From Haliotis asinina (taxonomy: Eukaryota; Mollusca; Gastropoda; Lepetellida; Haliotidae), in the NCBI RefSeq assembly GCF_037392515.1, contig NC_090292.1, positions 45,497,747 to 45,561,746 of the forward strand: a stretch of 64,000 bases of DNA. Reading direction: 5' to 3'. The notes beneath the pieces are model-generated. The model was not told where the DNA came from and made no database searches. It worked only from the letters and a program-made list of their open reading frames with translations. Below are positions 2,881-57,649 of the stretch, one piece after another (position 1 is the stretch's first letter; every line of letters begins with the position of its first letter). Position numbers and translations under genes: made by a program.

Positions 2881-2923
2881 TATTTTTTTAACAATCAATC
2901 ACCTCAAACTTCAAGGTTACAAG

Positions 2924-2946: not shown

Positions 2947-2958
2947 AATGCGAAGAGT

Positions 2959-4721
2959 TCAATGTAATACCAACATGTGTTCGATCCCGAACTTGTCGGT
3001 GACATAGTCTATGTCCGGATCTTCTTGGCACTTGACATGGTCATGGTCCATGATGGTCCAGTCGCATCTGCAACACTTGATCTGGCCGGAGTGGCATCCT
3101 CTCGTCATTATCGTGTCGTTATAGTCACAACTTCTGCGACGTTTGGTGTAGATTTCAGCGATAGTGTCTTGTTCGTTGACGTGAAGGGATGTAACTTCTC
3201 CTTTTGTTCTGTCTTCGTGTTGTCGTAGTAGGTTTAGCACATGTTTATAAAAGTTCTTTTCTTCGTCATTGAAGTCTTCCCATAGTCTGCCTTTTGCTGG
3301 AGCGTTGGTGTTTCTGCCGAATTTCCACTGCTCGTCGAATAGCTTCAACGTTGTTACGAGCTCTACGTCTTTTACCATAGTACTCTGTCCGTGGTTTTCT
3401 GTTTCTTGGTTGGTGGTGCTGCTGCTATCTGGAGTCGGACTTTTTCCTGTTCTTTCACCATTTCTGCCGCTTCCTTCAGGGCTTGATTGATATTCTCGAC
3501 TTCTTCCAGGTACTGTCTGAACTTCCACGCTATGTGTTTCTTGAAGGTGGTTGTCTTGAAATGTCCTTGGTCGCTTGGCTTGCTGTACTGCATGAGCAGA
3601 GGACGAGTAGAACACGTCGGCAACAGAATAGTCGCTTTGTCCAGGATCAGTATCTCGTATATCCCGCTTTCTTCTAATTCGTCTCTCGTCATTTTGCTCG
3701 TTTTCATGATCCAGAATTCTTCTTCGCAGTTGTCGTGGTTTTGTTGACACCACCTTTCTGGGAGCTTGAGGTGTGTTGTTCGGCACGATGGGAGTCCGAC
3801 TGGTGTCCGACTGGCGGCTCGTCTCGCACCTGGAAACGGGAGTACAGATAGGAGCATTGCTTTCTCGATTCCATACTGTTTCTGGCGATTCGTCGCTCAG
3901 TTCGTCCAAGTCAACTATCGTCTCGTCTTGTGTGTATTGTGGTAATTGTAATAGTTCTTGGTCAAAACTGTCATCGAGTATAATGCAGAGCTCTTGTTTT
4001 TTTTGTTTGTTCCATTTCATGAAAGAGTGTTTGCCACATTCCTGGATTGAGTTGTTTTGTGACATGTTTCAGGAATGGGGCCTGTTTGGCTTTGTATTGG
4101 TAAGTTCTGGCGTCTATGGCTGTTTTGGCTATGGGAAAATATTTCGTGATGCTGTTGTTGGTTGTGATAAGTACGGGCGTTCGTTTTAGTAGGGTGTCTC
4201 CCTGATTTTTTTTGTGAACCATAGTTTCTGCGCCCTCGAAGATGAGTTTGCATTCCTCCATTAGAGCGTCATCGGCTATGTATGGTTCCTCTATGAGTAT
4301 CAGATTTTTATCGACGCAGTCCTGCCAGACAAAATTGTAGCAGCTTCCCATTTTGACCTCCGCGTAGAAGCGTGTTATCGGAATGAGACTGCGCACTAGC
4401 AGCGATTTACCGCTATTGGGTTGGCCTAATAGAACAAACGTGTTTTTCTTGTTTTTTTGTTTAGCACTGAACTCAGTTCTTCTAAGAACTGGTCTTTGTC
4501 CCATCCGTTGTGTTTGGCTATTTTGTTGAAAATTTGCGTACTGGTTTCAACAGTTTCGTATTTGTTGGTGTCTGTCGTGTTGTTGTTTTCGTATTCGTTC
4601 ATGAGCTCGTCGAAGCTCAGTGTTTGCGTTCTCTGGCATTCTAAGGCCATGGCCTTCAGTGTTGTAGTTTGCGCCTGCTATTATCGAAAATAGTTGAGTG
4701 CTTTCTTTCTTGGATAATTTG
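2959..4721 (-). pseudogene. Parvovirus-like NS region (helicase and C-terminal part), copy A
   Basis: This is the fossil of the replication protein NS1. The minus strand encodes an SF3 helicase with Walker A GQPNSGKS, Walker B LILIEEP and a C motif ending ITTNN, with the QDCVDK and FEGAETMVHKK segments typical of parvoviral NS1. Downstream follow a charged low-complexity stretch and a C-terminal Cys/His cluster (CHSGQIKCCRCDW, then HDHVKC) that may have bound zinc. Over about 3370-3860 a second frame with a coiled-coil-like segment overlaps the charged stretch. The N-terminal nickase part lies beyond LINE-1 at 10722-11348. It is broken. Confidence 0.85.
4708..4721. repeat. Left target site duplication of LINE-1
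   Basis: The 14 bases TCTTGGATAATTTG are repeated exactly at 10708-10721, directly after the LINE-1 tail. The duplication shows that LINE-1 inserted by target-primed reverse transcription into the viral fossil. Up to three bases may instead belong to the tail. Confidence 0.95.
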
Positions 4722-4778
4722 GCACCCGTGGCGAGCCACCTCCTCGTGGTGGGTGCTGGGTAATGCCAAGAGCTCGCC
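4722..4778 (+). ncRNA. HDV-like self-cleaving ribozyme at the LINE-1 5' end
   Basis: The first 57 nt fit the HDV-like nested double pseudoknot. P1 pairs GCACCCG with TGGGTGC, the last pair being G-U. P2 pairs GGCGAGC with GCTCGCC. P3 pairs CCAC with GTGG around a CTCCTC loop, like the HDV L3 loop. The segment before P2' reads CCAAGA, giving a C-N-A-A match to HDV C75. P4 is very short or absent. The predicted cleavage site is directly before the first base, which is also the element end defined by the target duplication. Such ribozymes are known to free LINE RNAs from read-through transcripts. Confidence 0.8.
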
Positions 4779-5306
4779 GACACCCCCGTAGTGGACCCGG
4801 GGGGATATTTGGTCCACCAACTCGTTTGCCGTGGGTTGCGGCCTGTCTCGGCGGAGGAGGGGATCCTGGTGGTTGAGGGCAATAGGGGCCTGCAATCGTG
4901 TTCCTGTTGCTCAATACACCACTTTGGCCCTGACTTCGCCTAGACGGGTGGTCGAATGGGCCCGGTTCGACCAATCGGCTGGTCATGCCAAGCCCTTTGC
5001 GTGGATTATGTAATTGTACAAATTTGATTTTATATTGTTTCAATTTAGGTCTTGGCTTTTCACTCATATAGCACTTGTAAATTTGAAAAGTGATGTTATC
5101 AACTTTGCCTAGAGTCTAATGCCCAGAAGGCGGTGGCTCATGGGCCAATCTGGTAGATCGATTAATTTTCTATTAATCTTCTGCTGGAGTATACCGTTTC
5201 AGTATCCTTGGTGCTACCAGTCGGAGACCCACTGGTGTATAGCATTGTCCATGTGATACTCGGTGGAGGGTGGGGAGCTGGAATGGTGAACTTTCTATTA
5301 TTAACC

Positions 5307-6511
5307 ATGGCTCAACCAAAAAAACAAACGAGCACTAGATGAGTGTTTGTCCTCTGATGATGAAAATATCACAAACAGATATCCAGATACATGGAGTAGA
5401 TTCTTGGTTGTATCTTCGACTGATGGTGAACCACTCAAGCTAAATCCGTTTGCCACATCAAAAGCAATTTATGGACTTGTTGGTGATGTCCAAGCTGTCA
5501 GAAAAATTAGATCAGGGTTTCTCCTCATAGAGTGTAAAACAGCAAAACAATCAGCTACCCTCATAGCCACAAAACAGCTTGCAAATACTCAAGTTTCAGT
5601 TTCTCCTCACAAGTCTTTGAACAGTAGCAAAGGCATCTTGAGGGACAGAGACCGCTGGCTTGCCCACATGAGTGAAAAGGAAATAGTTACTGAACTGCAA
5701 CACCAAGAAGTCACTCATGTTAAACGATTCACGTTTAAGAAAAATGGAGAAACTTTGAATACCAACACCTACTTAATTTCTTTTTCTCAACCCCAACACC
5801 CAAAGTACATAAAAGCTGGATATTGTAACATCGAAGTGGAACAGTATATTCCAAACCCACTTCGTTGTTACAAGTGTCAAAAGTTTGGTCACGGTGCCCA
5901 ATCCTGCAGAAATCGTGCAACATGCTATAGATGTGGTAAAGATGATCATGAAGGTTCTGACTGTTTGTCTTCTCCAAAATGTGTCAATTGTCTTGGAGAT
6001 CATATGTCTTCGTCAAAGTCATGTCTGGAAACGTGGATATGAAATTGTCAAAATCAAAATCCAAAAGAATGTCACATATCATGAGGCAAAACGTTTAGTT
6101 AATGTAGCCTCCCCTCAGTCATCGGGTGTACCATATTCTACAGTTGTTGCTCGCCCCAATACTAAGTCTGTTCTGTCAGTTGCATGTCAGACTGATCTCA
6201 CCTGGGTTGAAGCTGACAAACACACTTTAATTGCATCAGATTCTACTGTTGATAAACACCATGCAACATCAGCTTGCCAGACTGAATCACAGACAGTATC
6301 TCCTGTTGTGAAAAATCCTTGTCAAAAAGTGGATTACAGACAAAAAACTGATCGAGTACAAAAGGGATCACGTGATCCTGTACAAATCTATAACAAGTTT
6401 CAACTGTTAGAAGACATGGACGTCTCTCCTCATCCCCGTGCGCGAAATAGAAGCAGTTCGCCTCGGAAGGGGAAAAGTCGGTCCCCAGTACTACCACCTG
6501 CTATAAAATGA
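5307..6511 (+). pseudogene. LINE-1 ORF1 (gag-like RNA-binding protein)
   Basis: The product coats element RNA. The visible order is an acidic N terminus, an RRM-like region (WSRFLVVSS to VKRFTF), three CCHC knuckles (first CYKCQKFGHGAQSC), an ACQTDLTWV motif and a basic, Ser/Arg-rich tail. The ATG at 5307 matches the start used in sister copies. A frameshift just after the start and another near 6030 separate N-terminal, central and C-terminal parts. The stop overlaps the ORF2 ATG as ATGA at 6508-6511. Confidence 0.85.
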
Positions 6512-9500
6512 ACAGTAACTCCTTAATCCAATGGAATTGCAGAGGACTTAGGACAAATTTTAATGAAGTACAGTTATTAGCACAGGATTTTAAACCATCA
6601 GCATTTAGTTTTCAAGAAACATACTTGAAACAAAATGATAAGTTCGAATTGCGTAAATACCATTCTTATCATTCTTTTTCACCCCCTGGTGACAAAGCCA
6701 CTGGTGGATCTTCCATATTGGTGAGACATGGTATAATTCATAGCCCTGTTCCTCTTCGTCTTACTTTACATATAACCCTTACTCTTTGTTCCTTGTATAT
6801 CTCCCTTTCTTCCATTCTCCATCAGAATGATCTTCAAGATTTGTATAACCAATTACCAAAACCCTGTATCATAATGGGTGATCTCAATGGTCATAACCCA
6901 TTATGGGGAAGTCCTGATGCCAACAGTAAAGGGAAAGTTCTTGAAGAGTTTATATCTGATAATAATTTATGTATACTCAATGATGGCTCTGACACATATT
7001 TACATCCTGGAACGGGAACATATTCTTCCTTAGACCTGTCACTCACTGATTCAAACGTTTATAATGAGTTTGAATGGTCAGTCCATAATGATCTTTGTGG
7101 TAGTGACCATTTTCCTACAGTACTTACAGCAATTAACCCTTCCGATGATCCGCCTGTAACAAGATGGAATTTTTCAAAGGCCAATTGGCCATTATTTCAG
7201 GCCATCTGCCTTAAGGAACTTAAATCAGACCTTTTCATGGATGTACCTGATCCAATTAAAATGTTCTCTGACAAACTGAAACATATAGCTGATGAAACTA
7301 TTCATAAGTCCTCTGTAAATCCGCACATCCGTAAACCATGGTTTAATGATGAATGCAAACAGGCTAGGAAAAAGAGGAAGAAAGCAGAGAAATATTTTCG
7401 TCTTCATCCCACTGTTCATAACTTAAATAATGTAAAAATCAGTTACGCTAAAGCTCGACGAACGTTTAAACACATTAAACGTCATACTTGGAAAAATTTC
7501 GTTTCCAAAATAAATTCCCGTACTCCTATGTCAAGGGTATGGAATATGATCCAAAAAATTAAAGGCAAGGGTTCCAAATCCAGTAGTATTCAGCATCTCA
7601 AAAATGATAATAACATACTAACTGAAAAAAATGATATTGCAAACAAGTTGGGTGAAACTTTGGCTAAACATTCGTCCTCCTCAAATTATCATCCAAAATT
7701 CCAGACTTATCAAACACACCAAGAGAAGAAACCAGTGAATTTTAAATCTGATAATGGTGAAGATTATAATGAGGTATTTTCATTACATGAACTTCATACT
7801 GCGCTATCACAGGCTCACGACACTGCAACAGGACCTGATGATATCCATTACCAACTCTTAAAACACTTGCCTGAATCATGTCTCGAAACGTTACTTGGCA
7901 TTTTTGACCATATTTGGATAACACAACATTTTCCCCCTTCATGGCGGAACGCCGTAGTTGTTCCTATTCCAAAGCCTGGGAGGGATCATACAGATCCATC
8001 AAATTACCGACCTATTTCCTTAACTAGCTGTGTTTGCAAAACCATGGAGCGAATGGTAAATAATCGCTTAGTTTGGTTTTTGGAAACCAACAATCTGATT
8101 ACTGATATACAATGTGGTTTTCGTAAAAACCGAAGCACAATTGACCACTTGGTTCGTTTGGAATCATTTGTAAAAAATTCTTTCATTAAAAAACAACATG
8201 CAGTATCAATCTTTTTTGATCTCGAAAAAGCATATGATACTACTTGGAAGCATGGTATTTTGAAAGATTTATATTCTTTTGGGTTGAGAGGTCGCTTGCC
8301 TCAGTGTATATCCAATTTTTTAAATGACAGACAGTTTCAAGTACGTGTGGGATCAACCCTCTCAGATTATTTTCATCAAGATCAGGGTGTTCCACAAGGC
8401 AGTATTTTGTCTGTGACTTTGTTTAGTATTAAAATCAATAGTCTTTCTAAGGTTTTAAGTGATTCAGTAGATGGATCACTATTTGTGGATGATTTTAATG
8501 TTTCTTGTAGAGGTAGAATATGCATACAATAGAGAGGCAATTACAAATTTGTCTCAATAAAATTGAAAAATGGTCACTTGAAAACGGGTTTAAATTCTCT
8601 ATGACAAAAACTAATTGTTTGCATTTCTACAGAAAGTATAAACCGCATAAAGATCCAGAACTATTTTTAGATGGCACCCCCATCAAAGTAGTAAAGGAGG
8701 CCAAGTTCTTGGGTCTTATTTTCGACTCACATCTACCCCACATTAAATCCCTTAAAACTAAATGCCTGAAGGCACTTGATCTGTTAAAAGTTGTTTCCAA
8801 TTCAAAGTGGGGAGGAGACCAAACTACCCTACTCCACTTATACAGATCGCTCATCCGTTCGAAACTTGATTACGGCTCCATCGTTTATGGCGGAGCCTGT
8901 AAAAGCAACCTCAAACTACTTGATTCTATCCACCATCAAGGTTTAAAACTATGTCTTGGGTCATTTAGAACTTCTCCCATTGACAGTCTTTACGTTGAGG
9001 CCGATGAGCCATCTCTTACTCAACGACGTATAAAACTCTCCTTACAGTATATAACAAAATTATATTCTAATGAAGCCAACCCTGCATTTGATTGTGTTTT
9101 TAATCCTCTTTATGAGGATCAGTACTATAAAAAATCTTCTCTTGTTCCGCCTCTGGGACTTAGAGTGAAACCTTTTCTGTCTGCTTGCGGCATTGAGCTA
9201 GCCAATATATCTCCTTCCCGTCTACTTTCGTCTCCACCTTGGCAGTTAGTTAGACCCGAAGTTGACCTAACACTGACAAGTTTTAAAAAATCAGAAACAA
9301 ATGAATTACAATATAAACAAGAATATAATCAATTAAAAAGTAAGTATAATACATACAAATCTTTATTTACAGATGGGTCCAAGGATGGTGGCGCAGTGGC
9401 TTGTGCCACTGTCATTGCATCCAGAACAATATCTTTCAGATTACCAGATAATAGTTCTATTTTCACAGCAGAAGCAAACGCAATATTAACTGCTCTTAAA

Positions 9501-10160
9501 TATATTGAAAGGCATCCCAGACATAAACAGTATATTATCTATTCTGATTCTCTTTCTTGCCTCCAGGCAATTAAAAACATGTCATGTAAACATCCACTTT
9601 TAATAGAAATAATTGAATTGTATAATAATCTTGCTACTGGCCAATACGACATCGTCTTTTGTTGGTTACCCAGCCATGTAGGCATTTCTGGCAACACAAT
9701 GGCCGATCTTGCTGCCAAGGCAGCACTCAAAAAATCCGTGACTCCACTTCTTGTCCCGTACTCTAATTATAAAGCTACCATTAGATCGTATATTCGAGAT
9801 CTGATGCAAAAGAGGTGGGACACCCAAGTGGGTGTAAATAAATGACATGCAATAAAACCTTATATTGGTTATACCCACTTGGGTTGTCAGTCCAGATTTC
9901 AGGAGGTCATTATGCGGCGATGTCGTATTGGCCATACGAGATATACTCATGAATATCTTTTGAAAGGTGAGGATCCTCCGTTCTGCATCCCTTGTGATGA
10001 AAGAATCACAGTCAAGCATGTCTTGCTTGACTGTGTTGAATATTCCATCACAAGGGATCAGTATTTTAATTCACAAACAATGAAGGATCTTTTTAGCAAT
10101 GTTAGCCCTCATTTAATTATTGCATTTTTAAAGGAATTAGATTTATTAACTGAACTGTAA
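6508..10160 (+). pseudogene. LINE-1 ORF2 (endonuclease, reverse transcriptase, RNase H)
   Basis: An AP-like endonuclease begins with IQWNCRGLRTN and continues through QETYLK, GDLNGHNPLWG and GSDHFP. The reverse transcriptase has KPGRDHTDPSNYRPISLTS, FFDLEKAYDTTW, QGVPQGSILS and the catalytic FVDDF. RNase H has FTDGSKDGG, TAEANA, YSDSLS and LPSHVGISGNTMADLAAK. A Cys/His tail (GHTRYTHEY, then CIPCDERITVKHVLLDC) ends the protein. A frameshift lies near 8520, a TGA replaces a leucine codon at 9843, and a few residues are missing between endonuclease motifs near 6750. Family length is about 1,210 residues. Confidence 0.92.
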
Positions 10161-10707
10161 ATAGATAAATATTTTATAATTGGAAGATTTAATTAGTGAC
10201 TCAAACCGTTAGTGGCTGTACCCTTGAAGGGGGTTGAAGTACCGTAAAATAATTGTCCTCCTGAGAGGGTACATAAGTCCAAAAACATTTGAAGTAAATT
10301 TAAGTTTTCCAGCTTTTTAATCGTGAAATGTTTTTAGTTTATGGCTAGATTTGTCTAAATTGCTAACAGCTGAAGGGATGATGTAAATCCAACTAGGGTC
10401 CATGCAGGAAGCAAATGTACTGTAAGTCCCCATGGCCCTTAGTATGGTGATCTACCTTCAGTTGTTGGCAACCTATAGCTCATTTTTATATTGTATTGTC
10501 CTGTATAGATACATTGTTTTAGGTCTATTCACTAGTTTTACATTCTACTCTGTGATATCCTAGTTAATTTTACTGTCCTTTGTCGACAGGGTTTTACAAC
10601 GTATGTGCTATTAATTCATTTGTACTTTCATAATTACTCGTTCTCGTCACGATATGGCTGCAATATTGCCGATGTGACGTTAAATATTAACTCACTCACT
10701 CACTCAC
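10161..10707 (+). other. LINE-1 3' UTR and (ACTC)n tail
   Basis: This 3' UTR is the most abundant sequence in the window. Blocks recur in every copy: GAAGGGGGTTGAAGTA, TCCTCCTGAGAGGGTAC, AGGGTCCATGCAGG, a stretch around GTAAGTCCCCATGG, and a terminal block (CGATATGGCTGCAATATTGC, GATGTGACGTTAAATATTAA) followed by ACTC repeats. Insertions made of only the terminal block occur at 42739-42800, so this end probably suffices for recognition by the reverse transcriptase. Confidence 0.85.
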
Positions 10708-11584: not shown

Positions 11585-11598
11585 TCAGAATTCGAGAG
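11585..11598. repeat. Left target site duplication of LINE-2
   Basis: The bases TCAGAATTCGAGAG recur at 17692-17705, directly after the LINE-2 tail. The first two or three bases can also be read as tail. Confidence 0.95.
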
Positions 11599-11655
11599 GC
11601 ACCCGTGGCGAGCCACCTCCTCGTGGTGGGTGCTGGGTAACGCGAAGAGCTCGCC
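11599..11655 (+). ncRNA. HDV-like self-cleaving ribozyme at the LINE-2 5' end
   Basis: The same 57-nt fold as in LINE-1: P1 GCACCCG/TGGGTGC, P2 GGCGAGC/GCTCGCC and P3 CCAC/GTGG with loop CTCCTC. Here the segment before P2' is CGAAGA, matching HDV C75-G-A-A even more closely than the CCAAGA of the other copies. The start coincides with the end of the target duplication. Confidence 0.8.
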
Positions 11656-19107: not shown

Positions 19108-19225
19108 ATTTTTTGAACTTGTGAAGGTCAAGGTCACTCATTTGTGTTTGTTTGTGGCACCTATCTTGGTTCTTTTAATCCCCATGCTGTGCTTGCTTGT
19201 TGTGCTTGCTGTAGGCCTGGCTGGT

Positions 19226-21750: not shown

Positions 21751-21839
21751 TAATTACCTCAATCTTTGATGTTACAATTCGTGTTCGAGACACGTTCGCG
21801 AACAAATGCGAAAAGTTCATTTTTAAAGTTCAATGTAAC

Positions 21840-24620: not shown

Positions 24621-26511
24621 CTGAGACAGGGAATATATAAATAGCACCCAGGTATTGGTCTAAGTTTTCCCTTTGCGTAAATGTTTGGCGTGTCTCTGCA
24701 GTGGAAAAGGAACACTTCCTAAATTCGTTTTTCTAATTTGAAACAGTAATAAGCTGTACATTGTTAACTGCTGAGCTGTCCCTCTTGGTCGAACCATTGT
24801 AACTGATTAGATTGTTATTTTGTGTTGAAATATGATTATCCAAGGTATAACTAAAATTCCGTTCGTCCACAGGGCATTGTTAGGGGCGAACATACTCTAC
24901 GGGCACTTCATATGCAAGCATACATGATTATTCACATCATTACACTGAAAAACAACACAAGAAAAGCAGACACCTGCACTTATACGTAAACTCATAATTA
25001 CTCTTTATGGAGTGTTTAGTTGGAATTCATTAGTCCACCTTCCATGTTTAGTGTACGTGGTACTTTGGGCAATTCTGTGAATTATAATGTGTAGCGGATT
25101 ATACTTTCGTCTTTATCAGGTAGGCGATTTGACTCTGTGTTTGAGCTATACTGCTATATACTGTACTGTTGTAATTTGTGTCTGACAAAGTCTGTTGAGC
25201 ACTTAAGGAACCCGCAGCTGGAACGAACGTGTTTGTCGATGGAAGCAATGTGCACGACAAGTGCAGAAACACATGGCAGTGTGTGGTGTTTAAAATAGAA
25301 ATGTTGGCTTAACATTCGCCCTGTTTTAATCTTAGAAATAACCAGAATTGAGCACATTTACAGTTTCATAATCTACCTTCTACCCATTTTTTAAAAATGT
25401 TGCAGAAATACATGTCTGCCATATAATGCTTTCAGTGTTAGAAGACAAAAGCTGTGTCTTCAATGTAAACTTTAGGCTGATACTTTGATTGTATGTTAAT
25501 GTGGAAGTGTACATGTATTTCAGGCAATACCTTTCAGAGTGTATTTACTGAGGCAGAACAAAAGGCGAAACAACTGTTACTTGACCAGGCATTTTTGAAA
25601 TATGTCCAGTCTCACAAGATCTGTCATCCGTGACAGATGTACAAGTTCAAAGGATGAGACTTACATGCAGATGATTTGATGAGATAGAAGTCCATCAGGT
25701 GAAACCCAGACATTCCATCATCGTCCCGCATGTAAACATCATTCATATTACTTTACAACAGTCGTATAATATACATTTACACTGTTTCATCAAATTTCCT
25801 AAATCAGTTTAAAATCAGAAAACTAAGATCTTACCACCAATAACGCCATAACACGACCGATACGTCCCACTGCTTGCTATTTAATGGCTTGACTAGCGAC
25901 ACCACGACTGCAAAGCTGCCAGCTATGACGCCATTATGACGTCATTGTTACGTGTCAGTTTAGCGGAATGGCGCTCGCTTGTACCGATCAAATATCTATG
26001 TACAAAACCAAGTCTGGCCTCTGGTTTCATGCGGCGAAAGGATCATATTGCAACACATTTCGTATTAACTGTGGCATGACATGGAAACAAGTTCACTGTA
26101 GAGGAATATCAGGTACTTCCCAAATGCACCGATTGTTTGTACATCGAAAACGTCAAATATGTGTTTACAAAAATTTAAATAAATTCAACTTTCAATACAT
26201 TTAGGGTATCATTAAACCTACAGGCTTAGGTGTCAAAAGCTGTGATCGCTCTAGAAAGCTGACGGATTAACATTGCGCTTGTAGCACTAATATAACATTG
26301 AAAGACAAACTGGATTTTATGAATTTAATTGTTGTGTTCAGTGTACACAGGTGTCCCCAACTCAGTCTAGGTGTGAAATAGAGATACAGAGATACAGTGC
26401 ACCCTGCATATAATATACCTTGAGCAGCGTGTAGACAAACATTCCCAAGCTCAGTCTGGTCTCCTGCATTCCACAGGGACATTTATGTCCTTCCACTTCA
26501 ACCCTCACTTG
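24621..26511. other. Intergenic or intronic stretch without a supported gene
   Basis: AT-rich DNA with only short, unsupported open frames. A small open frame at 25968-26204 has no recognisable domain. No repeat family or RNA gene was recognised. Confidence 0.5.
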
Positions 26512-26568
26512 GCACCCATGAACGGCCACCTCCTCGTGGTGGGTGCTGGGTAACGCCAAGAGCCGTTC
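26512..26568 (+). ncRNA. HDV-like ribozyme at the LINE-3 5' end (alternative P2)
   Basis: 57 nt with P1 GCACCC/GGGTGC, P3 CCAC/GTGG around CTCCTC, and the CCAAGA junction unchanged. P2 is GAACGGC/GCCGTTC instead of GGCGAGC/GCTCGCC. Both strands of the stem differ, yet pairing is kept, which is strong support for the fold. Confidence 0.82.
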
Positions 26569-27110: not shown

Positions 27111-28030
27111 ATGATACCTCCAAAACAACTCAAACGTACCTTAGAGGATAATTTATCTTCTGATGAAGACACCGTCTCAAAAGGCAAATCTGACCATTGG
27201 CCTCGTTATTTAGTGATTTCTTCTTCGGATGATGGTCCGTTGAAACTGAATCCGTCTGCTCTGTCAAAACCGATTTATGGCATTGCTGTTGACGTTGTGT
27301 CAATGAAAACTTTGCCATCTGGTTTTATATTACTTGAGTGCAAATCAGCATTTCAATCATCTACACCCTTAGCTGTTAAGCACCTCGTGTCCGTACCTGT
27401 TACTGTGTCCCCACACAAAACTCGCAACAGTTCTAAGGGCATTGTCAGAGACCGAGATCGTTGTCTGTTAGACATGTCTGAAGATGAGATAGCTTTTGAG
27501 CTAAAAGACCAGGGTGTAACAGGTGTAAAACGTTTTACAATTCGACAAAATGGTCAGATTGTAAATTGTAAAACACATATCTGCTCAACTTTACTGTTCC
27601 TGTTCCACCGTCATCCATCAAAGCAGGCTACTGAAATATCAGTGTGGACAAGTACATACCGAACCCACTTCGGTGTTACTCATGTCAGAAGTTTGGTCAT
27701 GGTGCTAAATCTTGTACCAACAGCAAGAAATGTCATCGCTGTGGAGAGCTTGCACATGACACGTTAGATTGTCCAAACAACCCAAAATGCGTTAATTGCT
27801 CTGGCGATCACGCTGCCTCAGCAAAACCTTGCCCTGTCTGGCAACAGCAACATCAGATTGTGAAACTGAAACATGAAAAAAATATTTCTTTTGCGGAAGC
27901 TAAACGTTTGGTTGCACATGATAACACTCCAACTGCAACTGTGTCATACTCTGCAGCTGTTACCCGTCAACCTAGTAAGACTGTTAAATCAGTTGAATGA
28001 CAGACTGAAATCACTTGGGTGACTACTGAG
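27111..28030 (+). pseudogene. LINE-3 ORF1, N-terminal and central part
   Basis: It starts MIPPKQLKRTLEDNLSSDED and continues through the RRM-like region and CCHC knuckles (CYSCQKFGHGAKSC, CHRCGELAHDTLDC, CVNCSGDHAASAKPC). A frameshift lies near 27570. A TGA replaces the Cys codon of the conserved ECQTEITW motif at 27998. The C-terminal part continues at 34041. Confidence 0.85.
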
Positions 28031-28538
28031 TGAGTCAGTGAGTTAATACTTAACGTCACATTGGCAGTATTTCAGCCATATCGTGACGAGAACATTTTGA
28101 TACTGAAATGAAATATGTATACATTATAAAATCCTGTCGTCAAAAGACAGTAAAACCACTAGAGCATCACATTTATAATTAAAACTAGTGTGGAGAGTTA
28201 AAACAATTACCACTATTCGGTAATAACATAAAATACGGGCTGTAGATCGCCAACAACTGAAGGTAGATCACCATACTAGGGACCATGGGGACTTACAGTA
28301 CTTCTGCTACCTGCATGGACCCCAGATGGATTTACACCATCCCCTCAGCCGTTGGCGATTATACTGAAAATTAGCCATTATTAAAAACAACAAATATACT
28401 ACGATTAAAAGTTTGGTCGTACTAAATTTACATAGAACGTTTTGGACTTACGTACCCTCTCAGGAGGACACTAATTTTACAATACTTCAACCCCCCTCGT
28501 TATTAATCTAGACTACCAATAATAAAATATTTATCTAT

Positions 28539-31500
28539 TTACAATTCTGATAACAAATTTAAATCTTTTAAGAAGGCAATAATTAAATGAGAGCTGGTAT
28601 GAGTAAAAAGATCAACCATAGTTCGTGAATTAAAATACTGATCCCTTGTGATGGAATACTCTACACAGTCAAGCAGGATATGCTTGACTGTGATTCTTTC
28701 ATCACAAGGGATGCAGAACGGAGGATCCTCACCTTTCAAAAGGTATTCATGAGTATATCGTGTATGGCCAATACGACATCGCCGCAAAATGACCTCTTCA
28801 AATCTGGACTGACAACAGAGGTGGGTATACCCAATATATGGTTTAATTCCATGTAATTTATTTACACCCACTTGACTGTCCCACTTCTTCTGCATCAGAT
28901 CACGGATATAAGATCTAATGGTAGCTTTGAAATCACTGTAGGGAATAAGAAGTGGTGTCACAGATTTGTTGAGTGCTGCCTTAGCAGCAAGATCGGCCAT
29001 TGCGTTACCAGAAATGCCTACGTGACTGGGTAACCAACAAAAGACGATGTCGCATTGGCCAGTAGCAAGATTATTATACAATGCAATAATTTCTATTAAA
29101 AGTGGATGTTTACAAGATATATTTTTAATAGCCTGAAGGCAAGAAAGAGAATCTGAATAAATTATATATTGTTTATGTTTAGTGTGTCTTTGAATATATT
29201 TGAGAGCCGATAATATGGCGTTAGCTTCTGCAGTAAAAATAGAGCTGTTATATGGTAATCTAAAAGATATTGTTCTGGATCCAATGACAGTGGCGCAAGC
29301 CACTGCACCACCGTCCTTGGACCCATCTGTAAGTAAAGCTTTATAATTGCTATATTTATGTTTTAATTGATTATATTCTTGTTTGTATTGTAATTCATTA
29401 GTTTCTGATTTTTTAAATGTGGCTAGTGTTAGGTCGACTTGTGGCCTAACCAACTGCCAAGGAGGAGTAGAAAGAAGACGGGAAGGTGCTTTATTGTCCA
29501 GCCCAATGCCGGCAGCAGAAATAAAAGATTTAATTCTGTGGCCTAAAGGCGGAAGTTTTTTCTGTTGTACCGTTCCTCAAAAAGGGGATTAAAGATGCAG
29601 TTATAGGCAGGGTTTGACTGACTGGAATGTAGTTTTGTCACGTACTGTAAGGCTAATTTTATACGGCGTTGATCAAGGGATGGCTCATCAGCCTCGACGA
29701 AGAGGCTCTCAATGGGTGACGTTCGAAAGGAGCCAAGACGAAGTCTTAGACCTTGATGATGGACAGAATCTAAAAGTTTAAGGTTACTTTTGCAGGCTCC
29801 ACCATATACAATTGAGCCATAGTCAAGTTTAGAGCGGACAAGTGATCTATATAAGTGAAGGAGAGTAGTCTGATCCCCTCCCCACTTTGAATTGGATACA
29901 ACTTTTAACAAATTGAGCGCCTTCAGGCATTTACCTTTAAGAGATTTAATATGTGGCAGAAATGTTAAATGGGAATCAAAAATTAAGCCCAAGAACTTGA
30001 CCTCCTTTACCACCTTGATGGGAGAGCCATTTAAGGTTAGCTCTGGGTCCTTATGAGGTTTATATTTTCTACAGAAGTGTATACAATTAGTTTTGGATTT
30101 AGAAAATTTAAATCCGTTTTCAAGACACCATTTATTTATTTTATTTAAACACAACTGTAATTGCCGTTCAATGGTGCGCATATTTTTACCACGACAAGAG
30201 ATAGTAAAATCATCCACGAATAATGATCCATCAATTGAATCATTTAAAACCTTTGATAAACTGTTGATCTTAATACTAAATAATGTGACAGACAAAATAC
30301 TGCCTTGAGGGACACCCTGAGGGACACCCTGATCCTGATTGTAATGATCAGACAGGGTAGAACCCACTCGGACTGTAAAAACTGCGATATAAAAAGAGTT
30401 AAACGACATCTCAAACCAAAATCATGTAAATCCTTTAAAATGCCATGCTTCCACGTGGTATCATAAGCTTTCTTGAGATCAAAGAAAATGGATACAGCAT
30501 GTTGTTTATTTACTCTAGCATTTTTCACAAAGGATTCTAAACGTACCAAATGATCAATGGTACTGCGATTTTTTCCTGAAACCCCATTGAATATTTGTAA
30601 CAAGGTTGTTGGTTTCAAGATACCATGTTAATCTATTATTTACCATTCGCTCCATGGTTTTACATACACAACTCGTTAAGGAGATTGGTAATTAGATGGA
30701 TCAGTATGATCTCGACCAGGCTTTGGTATTGGGACTACACTGGCATTACGCCAGGAAGTTGGAAAATTGCCTGTAGTCTAGATATTATCAAATATATTAA
30801 GCAGCGTTTCCAAACATGTTTTGGGCAAATGCTTCAGTAGCTGATAATGGATACCATCAGCCCCTGCAGCTGTATCATGAGCCTGTTCAAGGGCGGTATA
30901 GAGCTCATGCAGTGAAAATAATTCATTATAATCTTCACCATTGTCCGAGGTAAAATTGATTGTTTTCTTCTCCTGTTGTTTCTGGTGCTTTTGAAATTCA
31001 GGGACATAATTGGATAAAGATGAGTGCCTGGCGAGAGTTTCACCAAACTTATTGGCAATGTCAGCCTTATCCGTTAATAAATTATCACCATCCTTTAAAT
31101 GTTGAACGGTAGATTTGGAACCTTTGCCCTTTATTCTTTGTATCATATTCCACACCTTTGAAATAGGTGTGCGTGAATTGATCTTGGAAACATATTTTCT
31201 CCAAGACTGACGTTTATTCTGCTTAAATGTGCGTCGAGCCTTGGCATTTAAAATTTTAACTTTTTCTAAATTGTGAACAGTAGGGTGTCGGCGAAAATAG
31301 TCTTCTGCTTTCTTCCTACTTTTCCTGGCCTGTTCACATTCGTTATCAAACCATGGCTTACGAATGTGTGGATTTACAGAGGACTTAGGAATAGTATCAT
31401 CAGCAATTTGTTTCAGTGTCTCCGAAAATGATTGGATTGCATCATGAGCGTCCATGAAAAATTCTGGTTTTAAGTTTTTAGTACAACTAGTCTGAAATAA

Positions 31501-32214
31501 AGGCCAATTAGCTTTAGAAAAATTCCATCTTGACGTCGACAGATCATTAGTTGGAATTATAGCAGTGATTACTGTCGGAAAATGGTCACTACCGCACAGG
31601 TCACCGTGGACTGACCATGAAAATTCATTAAGTATGGTAGGATCTGTGATTGACAAATCTAGTACTGAATATGTACCCGTTGCTGGATGTAGATATGTGT
31701 TCGAACCGTCGTTAAATATGCACAAGTCATTATTAGAAACAAAATCTTCAAGAATTTTACCTTTATTGTTCGTATCGTTGCTTCCTCACAGAGGATTATG
31801 GCCGTTGAGATCTCCCGTTATAACACAGGGTCCAGGCAATTGGGAATATAAATCCTGAAGTTCTGATAGCTGAAGAGTCGAGGATGGTGGTATGTACAAG
31901 GAACAGAGTGTGATCGTGACGTGTAAGGTTAGTCGGACAGCAACAGCCTGAAGTTTAGTTTTAAGAGGAACAGGGCTGTGAATGATACCTTGTCTCACCA
32001 AAATCGAAGCACCCCCGGTTGCTTTATCCCCCGGAGGTGAAAAACAGTGATACGAATTGTACTGACGCATTTCAAACTTATCATCACGTTTAAGAAATGT
32101 TTCCTGTAGACTAAGTGCTGATGGGTTTAAATCTTGAGCTAATAATTGGACTTCGTGAAAATTATTCCTAAGCCCTCTGCAATTCCACTGTACTACATTT
32201 GTAGCGTTACTCAT
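28539..32214 (-). pseudogene. LINE-4 ORF2
   Basis: It starts at the ATG at 32214 with MSNATNVVQWNCRGLRNN. The endonuclease (QETFLK, GDLNGHNPL), reverse transcriptase (FFDLKKAYDTTW, FVDDF), RNase H (TDGSKDGG, TAEANA, SDSLS, LPSHVGISGNAMADLAAK) and Cys/His tail are all recognisable. Breaks occur near 31786, 30780-30620, 30400 (with a duplicated GVPQ segment at the reverse transcriptase motif) and 29540. The last 304 residues (28539-29453) are open. Confidence 0.9.
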
Positions 32215-33421
32215 GGCGGTTCTATTGGAGACCTCTCACGTGTACGAGAGGAGGGTGTACCGTTATTTCGGTTTTGTGAAGATGGCGTATCATCTCCAAA
32301 GGCTCAAACAAATTGTGAACCTCTACAGGAGTATCAGCAGGAGATTTCTTTGATCTACAATTTAGACGTTTTCTTTGCGATTTTGACATTTCACCTTTTG
32401 ACGTTTCAACATCTATAGCTGTTTGAACAACTTCACCTGACTGATAGTCTGAGAGGCAGACGCTGTAAAAAAAAGCCCTGACTGCCAGAAGTACTATTCA
32501 CATGAACAGGTTTCTCAGAAACCATCCAGGTCAAATCCGTTTGACACGAATTAGAGATTGTTTCTGGTCGTCGTGAGACTGCAGCAGAGTATGTCACAGT
32601 GGGAGATGGATTATCTTGATTCTATGATATTTGTTTCATACTTTAATTTAAGTATCTTAGATTGCATTTGCCATTCAGGACAACATTTAGAAGAGGAAAG
32701 ATGTCTGCGTCCACAATTGGCACATTTAATATCATTGCTGCAGTCAGAGTCCCGATGATGTTCACTACAACAATGACAACGAGGAGTGTTTCGACAGGAC
32801 TTAGACCCGTGTCCAAACTTCTGACAGGAATAGCAGCGGAGTGGAGTGGGGATATACACCTCCACTCCGATATTGAAATAGCCGGCTTTGATTGACTTTG
32901 GCAGAGTGCACGATGAAAAGGTAAACATGTAAATGTGGCCAGGTACAATGCTACCATCCTGCTTCTTAACAGGAAAGCGTTTGACGGAAGTTACATTCTG
33001 ATCCTTAAGTTCAGCCACTATTTCATCCTCGGACATGTCCGCCAGACAATGGGCTCTATCCCTAACAATGCCTCTTCTTGAGTTCAGAGTTCTATGAGCT
33101 GAGACAGCAACATTGACGTTGGCAAATTGATGTTGTTGCAATAAATTTATGGATTGCTGTCGTCGCGCACACTCAACAAGAACTGTACCTCCTCTGAGAT
33201 GTGAAACGTTCTTAACCTCTCCACAAATAGATTGTATTGTCTTTGATACTAGAAATGGATTGATCTTGAGTGGTTCACCGTTGGTAGATTCAATAACTAT
33301 GAATTTTGGCCAAGGTTCTTGGTGTGTTGGACCTGAAACATCTTCATTGCAAGAAAGGTGATCAGCCTCTAAACGTCTTTTTTTGTCGTTTCTCGTGGAA
33401 CCAGAAAGGGTGATTGACATG
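32211..33421 (-). pseudogene. LINE-4 ORF1
   Basis: The start MSITLSGSTRNDKKRR matches the family pattern. The RRM-like region (WPKFIVIESTNGEPLKINPF) and CCHC knuckles (CYSCQKFGHGSKSC, CHCCSEHHRDSDC, CANCGRRHLSSSKCC) are open down to about 32611. The Ser/Thr-rich C-terminal third (32600-32220) is scrambled by frameshifts. Confidence 0.85.
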
Positions 33422-34040
33422 GTGATGATAATAGATTCAGCACCCCCGCTCCCCACCCGCCACCGAGTGTCAACGAGGACAGTGTTGCACTGCAGTGGAA
33501 CTCCAGCCTGCAAACACTAAGGATACATTAGTGGTATACTCCAGTAAATACGACATGAGTAGCTACATTTGTCTACCAATTCAAATGCTAGGCTGGTTCG
33601 GCTATTAGCAAGAATTTGGAGACATATAGAACACAGAGGTCGACATCACCAGATTGGCCCATGAGCCACCGCCTTCTGGCATAGGACTCTAGGCAAGTAG
33701 ATATAGCAAAAAGGTATTACACACTAGACGTCAAAAATGACCAATGCTCAATAAATCAAATGTGAAAATACTTTCTATGCACAGGGCATGGCGTGACCAG
33801 CCGATTGATAGAATCGGGCCGATTCTACCACCCGTCTAGGTGAAGAAAGGGCCGAAGTGGTGTGTTGAGCAATAGGAGCAAAATGGTTCAGTCTCCTACT
33901 GCCCTCAACCACCAGGATCCCGTCCTCCACCGACACGGTACGCAACCCACGGCAAACAGGTTGCCCAATTTAGTCGCCTCTTACAACAAGCAATGGGGTG
34001 CTGTGGACACATTTTGTCCCGGGTCCACACGGGAGTTACA

Positions 34041-52694: not shown

Positions 52695-52828
52695 GATGTA
52701 AACACACATTCTACTTCGTAGAATGGATGCCGTTGCACAGTATAAGGAAATTCAAACACCCGACATTTTTATCTCAAGGACAATGACAATTTATAAATGA
52801 TGAGGTTTGCATTATCCTCAACTTGATG

Positions 52829-52885
52829 GCACCCGTGAACGGCCACCTACTCGTGGTGGGAGCTGGGTCACGCCAAGAGCCGTTC
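52829..52885 (+). ncRNA. HDV-like ribozyme at the LINE-9 5' end (alternative P2, decayed P1)
   Basis: 57 nt with P2 GAACGGC/GCCGTTC as in LINE-3, P3 CCAC/GTGG with loop CTACTC, and the CCAAGA junction. P1 is GCACCC against GGGAGC, with one mismatch. That mismatch and the altered L3 suggest post-insertion decay, and activity may be lost. Confidence 0.72.
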
Positions 52886-53455
52886 AAAGCCCCGTGTGAA
52901 CCCGGGTCAACTAGGTCCATAGCACCCCATTGCTGGTTGCAAGGAGCAACCGAATTGGGCAACCTGTTTGCCGTGGGTTGCGTCCCGTGTCGGCGGAGGA
53001 CGGTAGTCTGGTGGTTGAGGGCAGCAGGAGACTGAACCGTGTTCCTGTTGCCCAACACACCACTTCGGCCCTTACTTCACCTAGACGGGTGGTAGAATCG
53101 GCCCGATTCTATCAATCGGCTGGTCACGCCAAGCCCTGTGTGTATGGACTATACTTATTTGTCATCACACAATTTGGATTTGTTCATGTTAACCATTGGG
53201 TCTTGTTGAAATTGTTCATAACAGATGTTTAAACTTTCGAACAATGATGTTTTGCACTTTGCCTAGAGTCCTAAGCCAGAAGGCGGTGGCTCATGGACCA
53301 ATCTGGTGGATTTGTTATTTGTAACTCTTCTGCAGGAGTATATCATCCGAGTATCCTTGGTGCTGCAAGCTGGAGACCCGCTTGCTCTAGCATTGTCCCT
53401 GTGATACTCCATGGTGGGTGGGGAGCTCGGATGATGAATTGAAAAAACAATAACC

Positions 53456-54710
53456 ATGGCGTATGAAACCCCCTACAAAAAAACAAAACGTCTCCTTGAA
53501 GAAGATCATACTGATACTGACCTTAGACTGTCCAATCCTACTGAATACTGGCCACGTTTTCTAGTTGTTGAGACTGAAGATAGAACACCCTTGAAATTAA
53601 ACCCTTTTGCTGTGTCGAAGGGTATCCAAGGCATTGCCGGGGACGTAAAAAATATCATCAGAGTACGTTCTGGTGCACTCTTGATTGAGTGTACCAAAAA
53701 GCAACAGTCAACAAACCTGTTGAACACTAAGACATTTGTCGGCATTCCCGTCACCATCACGGCACACAAAACGCTCAACACGAGTAAGGGAATTGTACGG
53801 GACCGCGATAGATTACTCGCTGACATGTCAGAATTAGATATTGCCTCTGAAATGAAAGATCAGGGTGTTCTTTATGTGAAACGATTCTCAACTCGTAAAA
53901 ATAATGAAACTGTCACAACCAACACTTATCTGTTTTCCTTTTCCCTACCTTCTGCTCCAAGATCACTCAATGCCGGCTTTTGCAATCTAAATGTTGACAT
54001 TCCGAATCCTCTCAGATGCTTCAAATGCCAAAAATTCGGATATGGTGTAAATTCTTGTACATTATCCGTTGTGTGTGCTCGCTGTGGTGAAAAGACACAC
54101 ATAACAGAGGACTGTGACAGTTCTGTTACAAAATGCGCCAACTGCTCAGGGAATCATCCGTCTTATTCTAAAGAGTGTCCTGTTTGGAAACAGCAAATGG
54201 CATTAAATAAATTAAAACTTACACAAAACATCAGCTTTGCTGAAGCAAAGAGACAAGTATTAAGCTTAGAACAAACAGAAAGCTATGCTTCCATTGCCAG
54301 AAGAGCGCCAGAAACAGCATCTAGAGTACCTACAGTATCCACTAGCTGTCAGACAAACTTGACTTGGGTCAAAACGGATTCCCCAAACCTTTTCTCACCC
54401 GCTACATCTACTCAAACACGAGAATCGCTTACGGGTACGTCCCAAATACAATTAGAAACATCCCCTGATCTAGAACCATCTTCTCTGTCATCGACAAAGT
54501 CTCAGTAAAATTAAAGGTAAACAGCAAGATTCTTCAAAGAAACTGAGTGGGAGAGCCCCGAAAGGGTCACAAAATAAAATTAAGTTATTCAATAAATACG
54601 GATCGCTTGAGGATATGGACGTGTGTGAAAACGTCCATTCTAGGGCTCACAGCTTGTCGCCCACCAAAAAGGTGCGGGGTAGATCCCCAATAAACCCCCC
54701 AAAAAGATAG
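53456..54710 (+). pseudogene. LINE-9 ORF1
   Basis: MAYETPYKKTKRLLEEDH begins an open frame through the RRM-like region (YWPRFLVVETEDRTPLKLNPF), CCHC knuckles (CFKCQKFGYGVNSC, CARCGEKTHITEDC, CANCSGNHPSYSKEC), a SCQTNLTWV motif and STQT. One frameshift near 54500 separates it from the basic tail, which ends with TAG at 54708-54710 overlapping the ORF2 frame at an ATA. Confidence 0.85.
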
Positions 54711-57046
54711 GTTATCAGAATAATCTTTTACAGTGGAATTGTAGAGGTCTAAGGACTAATTTTAATGAGTTGCAGCTCTTAGTCCAGGATTTAATACCAT
54801 CAGCTTTCTGTCTGCAGGAGACCTATTTAAAACAGACAAATACTTTTGACCTGCGTCATTACAAGGCATATCATTGTTTTTCACCTCCCGGTGACAGGGC
54901 CACGGGAGGGTCTTCCATCCTAGTCAAACAGAATATTATCCATAGCCCTGTTTCACTTACTACTGATCTTCAGGCCGTCGCAGTGCGAATAACTTTGCAT
55001 GTTGCGTTTACATTATGTTCTCTCTATATTTCTCCGTAATCAACGTTTCACAAAACCGATCTTCAAGTGCTGTATCATCAAGTCCCGAAGCCCTGTATCA
55101 TAATGGGAGATCTGAATGGACACAACCCACTCTGGGGTAGTGTAACTACAGACGCTAAAGGTAAATTACTAGAAGAGTTTTGTTCTGATAATGATTTATG
55201 TATTTATAATGATGGTTCCAACACATATTTACACCCTGCTACAGGGACTTATTCTTCTCTCGACCTGTCAATCACAAATTCAGAATTACTAAATGAATTT
55301 GAATGGTCAGTGCACGATGACCTGTGTGGAAGTGACCATTTTCCTACTATTCTAAAGCCTGTAACTCCATCAGATGTACCTCCATCATCAAGGCGGAATT
55401 TTAAAAAGGCTAACTGAGCTTTGTTTGAAACACTGTGTGCTGAAAAACTTAAACCCGAACGTTTTATTGACACTCCCGATGCTATTAAATGTTTTTCGGA
55501 TGAACTAAATTCCATAGCTGATGAGTGTATACCAAATTCTTCTGCGGTTCCACACATTCGAAAACCATGGTTTAACGATGAGTGCAAACAAGCTAGGAAG
55601 GACAGGAAAAAGCAGAACATTATTTACGTCGCCATCCTATGGTGTATAATTTAAATAAGTTTAAAATTTTAAATGCTAAAGCACGGCGTACTTTTAAGCA
55701 GAACAAACGCCAATCTTGGCAAAATTATGTGTCCAAAATAAATTCGAGGACACCCATGTCCAAGGTATGGAACATGGTCCAGAAAATCAAAGGTAAAGGT
55801 ACTAAATCTGCTGTCCATCATCTTTAACATGGAGATCAATTACTTACTGATAAATCAGACATTGCAAATAAACTGGGTGAAACCCTTGCTAAACACTCTT
55901 CCTCTTCTAATTATGTACCTAAATTCCAGCAGTATCAAAAACAACAAGAAAAGAAAACTATTAATTTCAATTCTGATAATGGGGAAGATTATAATGAACC
56001 TTTTTCTGTTCATGAACTCCATACTGCTCTTGATCAAGCTCATGACACTGCTACTGGAGCTGATAACATCCATTATCAATTCCTGAAGCACTTACCAGAA
56101 TCCTGTTTAGAGACGCTCTTATATATAGTTGATGATATTTGGACTTCCGGTAAATTTCCTTCTTCATGACGTGATGCTATAGTAGTACCCATACCTAAAC
56201 CTGGACGTGATCATACTGATCCATCAAATTATCGTCCGATTTCATTAACTAGCTGTGTTTGCAAGACCATGGAACGAATGATAAATAATCGACTTGTTTG
56301 GTACTTGGAAACAAATAATCTCATAACAGATATACAATGTGGTTTCCGTAAAAACAGAAGTACTGTCGAGCACCTAGTGCGTTTAGAATCATTTGTGAAA
56401 AACGCGCTGATTAATAAACAACATGCTGTGTCTATCTTTTTTGATCCTGAGAAGGCATATGACACAACCTGGAAATATGGGATTTTGAGAGATTTACATA
56501 ATTTCGGTTTCCGAGGTCGCTTGCCTGAATTCATAGCCAACTGTTTAAACAACAGACAATTTCAAGTCCGCGTGGTTTCTACCCTGTCTGATCATTACAG
56601 TCAGGATCAGGGTGTTCCACAAGGCAGTATTTTGTCAGTCACACTTTTTAGTATAAAGATAAATAGTTTATCAAAAGTTTTAAACGATTCAATTGATGGA
56701 TCGTTATTTGTGGATGATTTTAATATTTCTTGTCGTGGGAAAAATATGCATACTATTGAACGGCAACTGCAGCTGTGTTTGAACAAAATAGATAAATGGT
56801 GTCTTGAAAACGGCTTTAAATTTTCTAAATCGAAAACTAATTGCATACATTTTAGTCCTAAATACAAACCGCATGAAGACCCTGAACTATCTCTAGATGG
56901 CACTCCCATTAAAGTTGTCAAGGAGGCCAAGTTTCTGGGCCTAGTTTTCGACTCCCATTTAACTTTTTTGCCGCATATTAAATCCCTCAAAGCCAAATGC
57001 CTGAAAGCACTCGATCTGTTGAAAGTTGTTTCCAACTCAAAGTGTG
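54707..57046 (+). pseudogene. LINE-9 ORF2 (endonuclease and reverse transcriptase, cut by LINE-10)
   Basis: From ATAG at 54707 it reads NNLLQWNCRGLRTN, QETYLKQ, GDLNGHNPLWG and GSDHFP, then the reverse transcriptase with FFDPEKAYDTTW and FVDDFN. Stops occur near 55037, 55415, 55825 and 56167, and frameshifts near 55610. The last 250 residues before the LINE-10 junction are open. RNase H is displaced beyond the window. Confidence 0.88.
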
Positions 57047-57103
57047 GCACCCGTGGCGAGCCACCTCCTCGTGGTGGGTGCTGGGTAACGCCAAGAGCTC
57101 GCC
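57047..57103 (+). ncRNA. HDV-like self-cleaving ribozyme at the LINE-10 5' end
   Basis: 57 nt identical in fold to LINE-1: P1 GCACCCG/TGGGTGC, P2 GGCGAGC/GCTCGCC, P3 CCAC/GTGG with loop CTCCTC, and the CCAAGA junction. It belongs to the least decayed 5' end and is the best copy to test. The body of LINE-10 resembles LINE-3, yet the two use different P2 stems. Confidence 0.83.
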
Positions 57104-57649
57104 GACACCCCCGTAGTGGACCCGGGGGGGATATTTGGTCCACCAACCCGTTTGCCGTGGGTTGCGGCCCGTGTCGGTGGAGGAAGGGATCCTGGTGGTT
57201 GAGGGCAATAGGTCCCTGCAACCGTGTTCCTGTTGCCTAATACACCACTTTGGCCCTGACTTCACCTAGACGGGAGGTTGAATGGGCCCGGTTCAACCAA
57301 TCGGCTGGTCATGCCAAGCCCTGAGCATTGTCATTGTTTTTGCTCAAATTTGACTTTTTCAAATGTTTGTAAATGGGCCTTTGTCATATAGCTTGTAGAC
57401 CAGTAATATCTATTGATATATTGATGCCACATTAACCAAACTGTTATTACCTAGAGTCTAATGCCCAGAAGGCGATGGCTCATGGGTCAATCTGGTGGAT
57501 TTATTGATCTGGAATTGATACTTCTGCTGGAGTATATCATCCCAGTATCCTTGGTGCTGTCAGTAGGAAACCAACTGGCATATAGCATTGTCTTTATGAT
57601 ACTCCGTGGTGGGTGGGGAGCTGGGATGATGAAGTTCTATGACTTTACC

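What the first reader, a model, noticed from the sequence alone, without database searches (positions are those of the whole stretch)
57047..57103. LINE 5' ends carry an HDV-like ribozyme, supported by covariation of a whole stem
All five complete 5' ends (4722, 11599, 26512, 52829, 57047) start with a 57-nt segment that can form P1, P2 and P3 of the HDV-like double pseudoknot, with an HDV-like L3 (CTCCTC) and a C-N-A-A junction before P2'. P2 is GGCGAGC/GCTCGCC in three copies and GAACGGC/GCCGTTC in two. Both strands change and pairing is kept, which is hard to explain without the fold. The predicted cleavage point is exactly the element end fixed by two 14-bp target duplications. HDV-like ribozymes are known at the 5' ends of R2, RTE and other LINEs; their presence in this I/Nimb-like molluscan family, with almost no P4, may be undescribed.
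Basis: partly seen in the sequence, partly recalled or inferred. Interest (0 to 1): 0.88.

Follow-up and report, generated by a model that had tools for sequence, protein, structure and literature searches.

The report
Delta-like ribozyme heading mollusc-type LINEs
Jumping genes in this animal-type DNA begin with a short stretch that very probably encodes a self-cutting ribozyme of the hepatitis delta type, likely used to trim the element's RNA at its exact start; such ribozymes are known from other jumping genes, so this is a good new member of a known kind.

Summary
Five LINE copies start with a 58-nt segment that fits the HDV-like double pseudoknot without P4. The three best Rfam hits for copies 57046 and 26511 are HDV-like ribozymes, all below gathering scores. 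P2 exists in two fully paired versions differing in 4 of 7 pairs on both strands. A strict descriptor accepts 4 of 5 copies, nothing else in the window, and 13 of 785,445 shuffles. The predicted cleavage site agrees, to one shared G, with the element end set by two target duplications.
Corrections: the segment starts at 57046, not 57047; copy 52828 has a broken P1; the P2 types do not follow the copy tree, so cassette exchange may explain them and independent events cannot be counted; absence of P4 is already described for some R2 and for phage/metagenomic ribozymes. My library searches showed no such ribozyme in an animal I-superfamily LINE, but key papers were not available. Directly downstream lies a structured leader, 69-73% identical to that of a LINE on a Solemya-symbiont contig. 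Cleavage was not tested.

The parts
57046..57103 (+). HDV-like ribozyme of the copy named in the finding: P1 57046-57052/57076-57082, P2 57055-57061/57097-57103, P3 57063-57065/57073-57075, L3 57066-57072, P1.1 G57083-G57084 with L3 C57067-C57068 (placement partly recalled), predicted catalytic C57091, no P4; predicted cleavage 5' of G57046
4721..4778 (+). ribozyme, P2 type GGCGAGC/GCTCGCC
11598..11655 (+). ribozyme, same P2 type; junction C-G-A-A
26511..26568 (+). ribozyme, P2 type GAACGGC/GCCGTTC; highest Rfam scores of the three copies scanned singly (27.2 and 27.0 bits)
52828..52885 (+). degenerate ribozyme, P2 type GAACGGC/GCCGTTC, P1 A-A mismatch
4708..4721 (+). 5' target-site duplication of the 4721 element (3' copy 10708-10721); last G shared with the ribozyme
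11585..11598 (+). 5' target-site duplication of the 11598 element (3' copy 17692-17705); last G shared with the ribozyme
4721..10707 (+). full-length but decayed LINE: EN-RT frame 6451-8532, RNase H frame 8517-9845, CTCA-repeat tail
57138..57312 (+). structured 5' UTR block downstream of the ribozyme, related to a LINE leader in L002
28027..34033 (-). LINE copy without the ribozyme, 5' end just after P2', nested in the 26511 element

Best explanation
The first 58 nt of this LINE family encode an HDV-like self-cleaving ribozyme of the compact, P4-less type. The element is transcribed as part of a longer upstream RNA. The nascent RNA folds into the double pseudoknot, and the predicted general acid C57091 helps cut the chain immediately 5' of G57046. 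This frees an RNA whose 5' end is the element's exact start, with a 5'-hydroxyl. The LINE protein copies that RNA to its end by target-primed reverse transcription, and the new copy joins the target through a short microhomology (G). So each full-length insertion carries the ribozyme again and needs no promoter of its own upstream. Shown here: the sequence, its fit to the fold, the two P2 versions, the position at the element end and the shared G. Inferred: transcription from upstream, cleavage, chemistry and use in retrotransposition.
For: HDV-like Rfam models are the only hits (E up to 10) in copy 57046 (E 0.014, 0.053, 0.51) and the three best of five in copy 26511 (E 0.0014, 0.017, 1.1), with P1, L3, P1' and the GGGTAA stretch aligned in both printed models, and the C-N-A-A-G junction aligned in the F. 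prausnitzii model. Strict descriptor: 4 of 5 copies, no other hit on either strand, 4 loci in 100 simulated 64-kb strands; 13 of 785,445 local shuffles. P2: 4 pairs changed on both sides with 35 of 35 cells paired; slid controls give 0 such pairs. Copies 26511 and 57046 are 93.1% identical over nt 59-1400, yet 8 of 14 P2 bases differ and every pair is kept. The ribozyme without P2 is 91-98% identical among copies that are 63-72% identical over nt 59-1400 (26511/57046: 93%) and 74-94% over nt 59-330. Two target duplications put the element end at the predicted cut, to 1 nt; in 4 of 5 other copies aligned to the target of 57046 the pre-insertion site has GG at that place, the fifth alignment stopping short of it. 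R2 elements that cut at their own 5' end are proposed to join by such microhomologies (PMC3774820, abstract and discussion).
Against: No Rfam match reaches its gathering score (0 hits in the window). Nested folding energy is ordinary (z -0.24 to -0.30 in three copies) and a plain hairpin is predicted for 57046. Only five copies: 118 of 500 shuffles reach the number of doubly changed pairs and 441 of 500 the number of further pair types, although 0 of 500 reach the doubly changed cells, the covariation score or the percentage paired. Copy 52828 scores weakly and an unrelated family leads its list by bits. The Solemya-contig relative showed no convincing ribozyme among the hits printed. Base 57045 is T where the aligned copies have G, so the junction of 57046 is not clean.
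Confidence: 0.88

Rival explanations
1. The fold is real but inactive or vestigial; the 5' end is fixed by an internal promoter or by the reverse transcriptase. The Pr77 hallmark of L1Tc, for comparison, is both promoter and ribozyme.
For: Promoter and ribozyme functions share the 77-nt Pr77 in trypanosomatids (abstracts in search listings; passages of PMC4035085). The ORFs of the 4721 copy are split. Rfam scores are below gathering.
Against: The junction C is kept in 5 of 5 copies and L3 and P1' in 4 of 5; P2 is kept by paired changes, which a DNA promoter would not need.
Confidence: 0.08
2. The P2 pairing differences come from copying one strand of an inverted repeat onto the other, or from exchange of the whole 5' cassette, and not from repeated selection for the stem. 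This concerns how the stem changed; it is compatible with the ribozyme reading.
For: P2 types do not follow the tree of nt 59-1400 (26511 with 57046, 11598 with 52828). Copy 11598 has a leader closest to 4721 and 57046 (85.5% each) but is closest to 52828 over nt 59-1400 (71.8%), which suggests exchange. Both copies of the second type carry exactly the same stem.
Against: It does not explain why P1, L3, P1.1 and the junction also fit HDV-like models, nor the position at the element end.
Confidence: 0.3
3. Chance resemblance or a simple GC-rich hairpin.
For: The segment is GC-rich and a nested hairpin is stable.
Against: 13 of 785,445 shuffles; HDV-like models lead; the hairpin predicted for 57046 uses CGAG with CTCG, and the other P2 type lacks CGAG there.
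Confidence: 0.03

Closest known systems
R2 retrotransposon HDV-like ribozymes (PMC3774820; abstract, sections 12, 16, 19 and part 1 of 2 of section 17 read)
   Same: HDV-like fold at or near the 5' end of a LINE; P1 of 6-7 bp; P4 sometimes too short to form; cleavage at the element 5' end in some species, with microhomology joining proposed
   Different: R2 inserts in 28S rDNA and many R2 ribozymes use rDNA for P1; here flanks differ from copy to copy and the whole ribozyme lies in the element
L1Tc/ingi Pr77 HDV-like ribozymes of trypanosomatids (PMC4035085; abstract and passages seen)
   Same: 5'-terminal HDV-like ribozyme in a LINE with endonuclease, reverse transcriptase and RNase H; wider I group (grouping recalled)
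   Different: Protist hosts, promoter in the same segment; no sequence comparison was made here
Minimal (P4-less) HDV-like and theta ribozymes (PMC10879173; passages seen)
   Same: No P4, catalytic C in J4/2, cleavage at G1; the Rfam F. prausnitzii model gives the lowest E-value in each of the three copies scanned singly
   Different: Found nearly all in phages, often next to tRNAs; the eukaryotes surveyed there were human, mouse and protists
drz-agam-1 (RF01787; mosquito, organism recalled)
   Same: P3/L3 stretch ACC-TCCTCGT-GGT is the same in the alignment
   Different: The model has a 10-bp helix after P1', absent here; the match covers only positions 22-71 of 82

Membership tests
HDV-like self-cleaving ribozymes | Double pseudoknot with strands in the order P1-P2-P3-P3'-P1'-P2' | tested here: met
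   4 of 5 copies fully, 52828 with one P1 mismatch
HDV-like self-cleaving ribozymes | L3 with UCCUCG-like core and P1.1 pairs with GG after P1' | tested here: met
   one P1.1 pair lost in 52828; P1.1 placement recalled
HDV-like self-cleaving ribozymes | Catalytic C in J4/2 followed by N-A-A or similar | tested here: met
   GC[C/G]AAG in 5 of 5
HDV-like self-cleaving ribozymes | Match to a curated covariance model at gathering score | tested here: not met
   best 27.2 bits against 50, and 27.0 against 44. The models are of single subfamilies and their structure lines leave out P2, so this is no defining feature of the wider class
HDV-like self-cleaving ribozymes | P4 helix | tested here: not met
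   6 nt between P1.1 and the C. P4 is absent from accepted minimal members (PMC10879173) and can be too short to form in R2 (PMC3774820), so it is not required
HDV-like self-cleaving ribozymes | Self-cleavage 5' of G1 | not testable with these tools
   needs an assay
I-superfamily LINE | Endonuclease, RT and RNase H in this order | tested here: met
   (frames 6451-8532 and 8517-9845 of one copy); that this order marks the I superfamily is recalled
I-superfamily LINE, Nimb clade | RT phylogeny with reference Nimb and Ingi elements | not tested
   no named reference elements at hand; Nimb and Ingi are reported as the only I clades across molluscs besides an unknown clade in one cephalopod (PMC10294476, passages)

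The most novel reading that the evidence does not exclude
Animal I-superfamily LINEs carry an exchangeable 5' cassette: a P4-less HDV-like ribozyme whose P2 stem type passes between families, followed by a deeply conserved structured leader (shared with the LINE on the Solemya-symbiont contig) that takes over translation of the uncapped, self-cleaved RNA.
Probability: 0.3. Interest if true: 0.65.

Novelty: new member of a known kind. Interest (0 to 1): 0.5.

Why it matters
If active, it adds a dispersed animal LINE of the EN-RT-RNase H kind to the elements that define their own 5' end by self-cleavage, and it brings the P4-less form, described mainly in phages and in some R2, into such a LINE. 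Two P2 versions within 93%-identical copies make exchange of ribozyme cassettes between LINE families testable, and the conserved structured leader is a defined candidate for cap-independent translation.

Tried and rejected
Rfam gathering scan of the whole window: 0 hits. A first fuzzy scan timed out and printed nothing. Exact patterns in viral contigs: 0 matches in three scans, two of the ribozyme core and one of the leader. An RT profile (A2) in viral contigs: 12 stretches matched, none a relative. The same profile in genome contigs: 78 stretches matched, 8 relatives, all on records filed as bacterial, several of them bivalve gill symbionts; host DNA is my guess. A relaxed descriptor on the 8 loci printed at most the best three loci per strand; those on the + strand of L002 do not lie just upstream of its leader, and lower hits were not viewed. 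Rfam on the 8 loci: 4 weak hits, none a ribozyme. No target duplication was found for the L002 element, so its 5' end is unknown. No match of the 5' end in plasmids or phages or of the leader in plasmids. The window's own genome could not be searched. Rejected as evidence: single-strand folding energy, since the method cannot see pseudoknots.

Literature searches: 15 papers, all listed; 25 of 39,189 listed; 15 of 2,074 listed; 3; 10; 10 of 12 listed; 10 of 11 listed; 5. Searches were too wide to say anything about absence. I did not open most listed papers. Ruminski 2011 is not held; Webb 2009 and Riccitelli 2014 were not looked up and are known to me from reference lists and recall.

Full report
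What is there. Five LINE copies in the window start with the same 58-nt segment, at 4721, 11598, 26511, 52828 and 57046 on the + strand. The 4721 copy encodes an endonuclease, reverse transcriptase and RNase H (Pfam) and ends in a CTCA repeat; its frames are split. Copies are nested: 57046 sits in the 52828 element, and a minus-strand copy ending near 34033 sits in the 26511 element. The 3'-tail sequence reminded me of abalone genomes; that is recall, and no call identified the species.

Fold. In copy 57046: P1 57046-57052 with 57076-57082, P2 57055-57061 with 57097-57103, P3 57063-57065 with 57073-57075, L3 TCCTCGT, GG after P1' for P1.1, and GCCAAG before P2', with C57091 in the place of the C of GCUAAG in the F. 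prausnitzii model. That this is the catalytic C is recalled. Six bases separate P1.1 from it, so there is no P4. In copy 57046 (141 nt scanned, E up to 10) the only Rfam hits are HDV_ribozyme (24.7 bits), HDV-F-prausnitzii (22.7) and drz-agam-1 (15.8), all below gathering scores. Copy 26511 gives 27.2, 27.0 and 14.5 bits, followed by two unrelated families at 11.7 and 11.5. Copy 52828 gives 17.2, 16.4 and 11.7; an unrelated family has 18.2 bits, though the lowest E-value (0.4) is again F. prausnitzii. The HDV_ribozyme alignments place the 3' part of the model some 30 nt further downstream, past P2', so only the F. prausnitzii alignment supports the short, P4-less junction. Copies 4721 and 11598 were not scanned singly.

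Chance. A strict descriptor, written from general knowledge of the HDV fold after seeing these sequences, finds 4 of the 5 copies and nothing else on either strand; 100 simulated 64-kb strands held 4 loci. Dinucleotide shuffles of 57 nt fit in 13 of 785,445 cases, and of the first 150 nt in 84 of 134,398. Copy 52828 fails because P1 has an A-A mismatch; P1 mismatches have been linked to missing or weak cleavage in other HDV-like ribozymes (PMC3774820, section 12).

Covariation. Across five copies 97.9% of 95 cells pair; four P2 pairs change on both sides, P3 never varies, and P1 departs only by the one mismatch. Slid controls give 34-44% paired and no doubly changed pair. In shuffles 0 of 500 reach the covariation score, the doubly changed cells or the percentage paired, but 118 of 500 reach the number of doubly changed pairs and 441 of 500 the number of further pair types, so five sequences set a limit. 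Copies 26511 and 57046 are 93.1% identical over nt 59-1400 yet carry different P2 types. In the tree of that stretch 26511 groups with 57046 (support 1.00) and 11598 with 52828 (0.98), each pair with one of each type. So the stem switched as a block at least twice, or one type passed between families by exchange of the 5' end. Copy 11598, whose leader and longer downstream stretch have different nearest relatives, suggests that exchange occurs. Either way both strands travel together.

The end of the element. The 4721 and 11598 copies have 14-bp target duplications whose last base is the G that opens the ribozyme. For 57046 the target was read from other copies: in 4 of 5 alignments it has GG at that place, and the fifth (11599 copy) stops before it; base 57045 is T where those four have G. 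So in the three insertions that could be judged the first G can belong to target and element alike, and it is G in 5 of 5 copies. The simplest reading is that the RNA begins at G57046 and that joining used this G. Microhomology joining is proposed for R2 elements that cut at their own 5' end (PMC3774820). The 26512 copy shows no duplication. The minus-strand copy starts just after P2' and lacks the ribozyme, which fits reverse transcriptase stopping at the folded ribozyme, but it is one case.

The leader behind it. The next block (57138-57312) and its counterparts in six window copies are 69-73% identical to the leader of a LINE in locus L002, a contig filed under the Solemya velum gill symbiont and perhaps host DNA, although the proteins share about 50%. 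RNAalifold predicts 57 pairs, 8 with changes on both sides in at least one sequence, with a small covariation term of -0.66 kcal/mol; one hairpin pairs in 55 of 56 cells of eight pairs. The folding energy of 57104-57235 alone is ordinary (z 0.65). An RNA cut by the ribozyme has no cap, so this leader is a candidate for starting translation; that is inference.

What is known. HDV-like ribozymes are established at LINE 5' ends: R2 and, as cited there, R4, L1 and RTE clades (PMC3774820, section 17 part 1), and L1Tc/ingi (PMC4035085, passages); a review speaks of R2 and other LINEs (PMC7761336, passages). Ribozymes without P4 are known in some R2 elements (PMC3774820, section 16) and as minimal or theta ribozymes, nearly all in phages (PMC10879173, passages). 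My searches (two searches were too wide) listed no report for an animal I-superfamily or mollusc element, but most listed papers were not opened, Ruminski 2011 is not held and Webb 2009 and Riccitelli 2014 were not read. I therefore file this as a new member of a known kind, with the P4-less form and the two P2 types as its points of interest.

What could not be done. The window's own genome could not be searched (10 of 10 requests unanswered), so genome-wide covariation is open. No activity data exist here.

Noticed in passing
57138-57312 and L002:6025-6235: Structured LINE leader, 69-73% identical between this family and a LINE on a Solemya-symbiont contig; an exact 22-nt stretch is shared by L002, window copy 52828 and the minus-strand copy, and the other four copies differ from it at 1-2 bases.
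   Followed up: partly
28027-34033 (-): LINE copy of the same family that begins just after the ribozyme's P2', with a 6-bp repeat ACTGAG on both sides; may reflect reverse transcriptase stopping at the folded ribozyme.
   Followed up: partly
11598-13000 against 52828-54250: Mosaic relationships: the 11598 leader (nt 59-330) is closest to 4721 and 57046, but over nt 59-1400 the copy groups with 52828, which suggests 5' exchange between families.
   Followed up: partly
L001-L008: Animal-type LINE genes on contigs filed as bacterial genomes (gill symbionts, MAGs); L002 has ORFs of 517 and 1236 aa. Perhaps host contamination or chimeric assembly.
   Followed up: no
72-1953 and 19146-21064; 2235-3767 and 21063-22629: Another long repeat pair in the window, 77-94% identical in its pieces, apart from the LINE copies studied here.
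   Followed up: no
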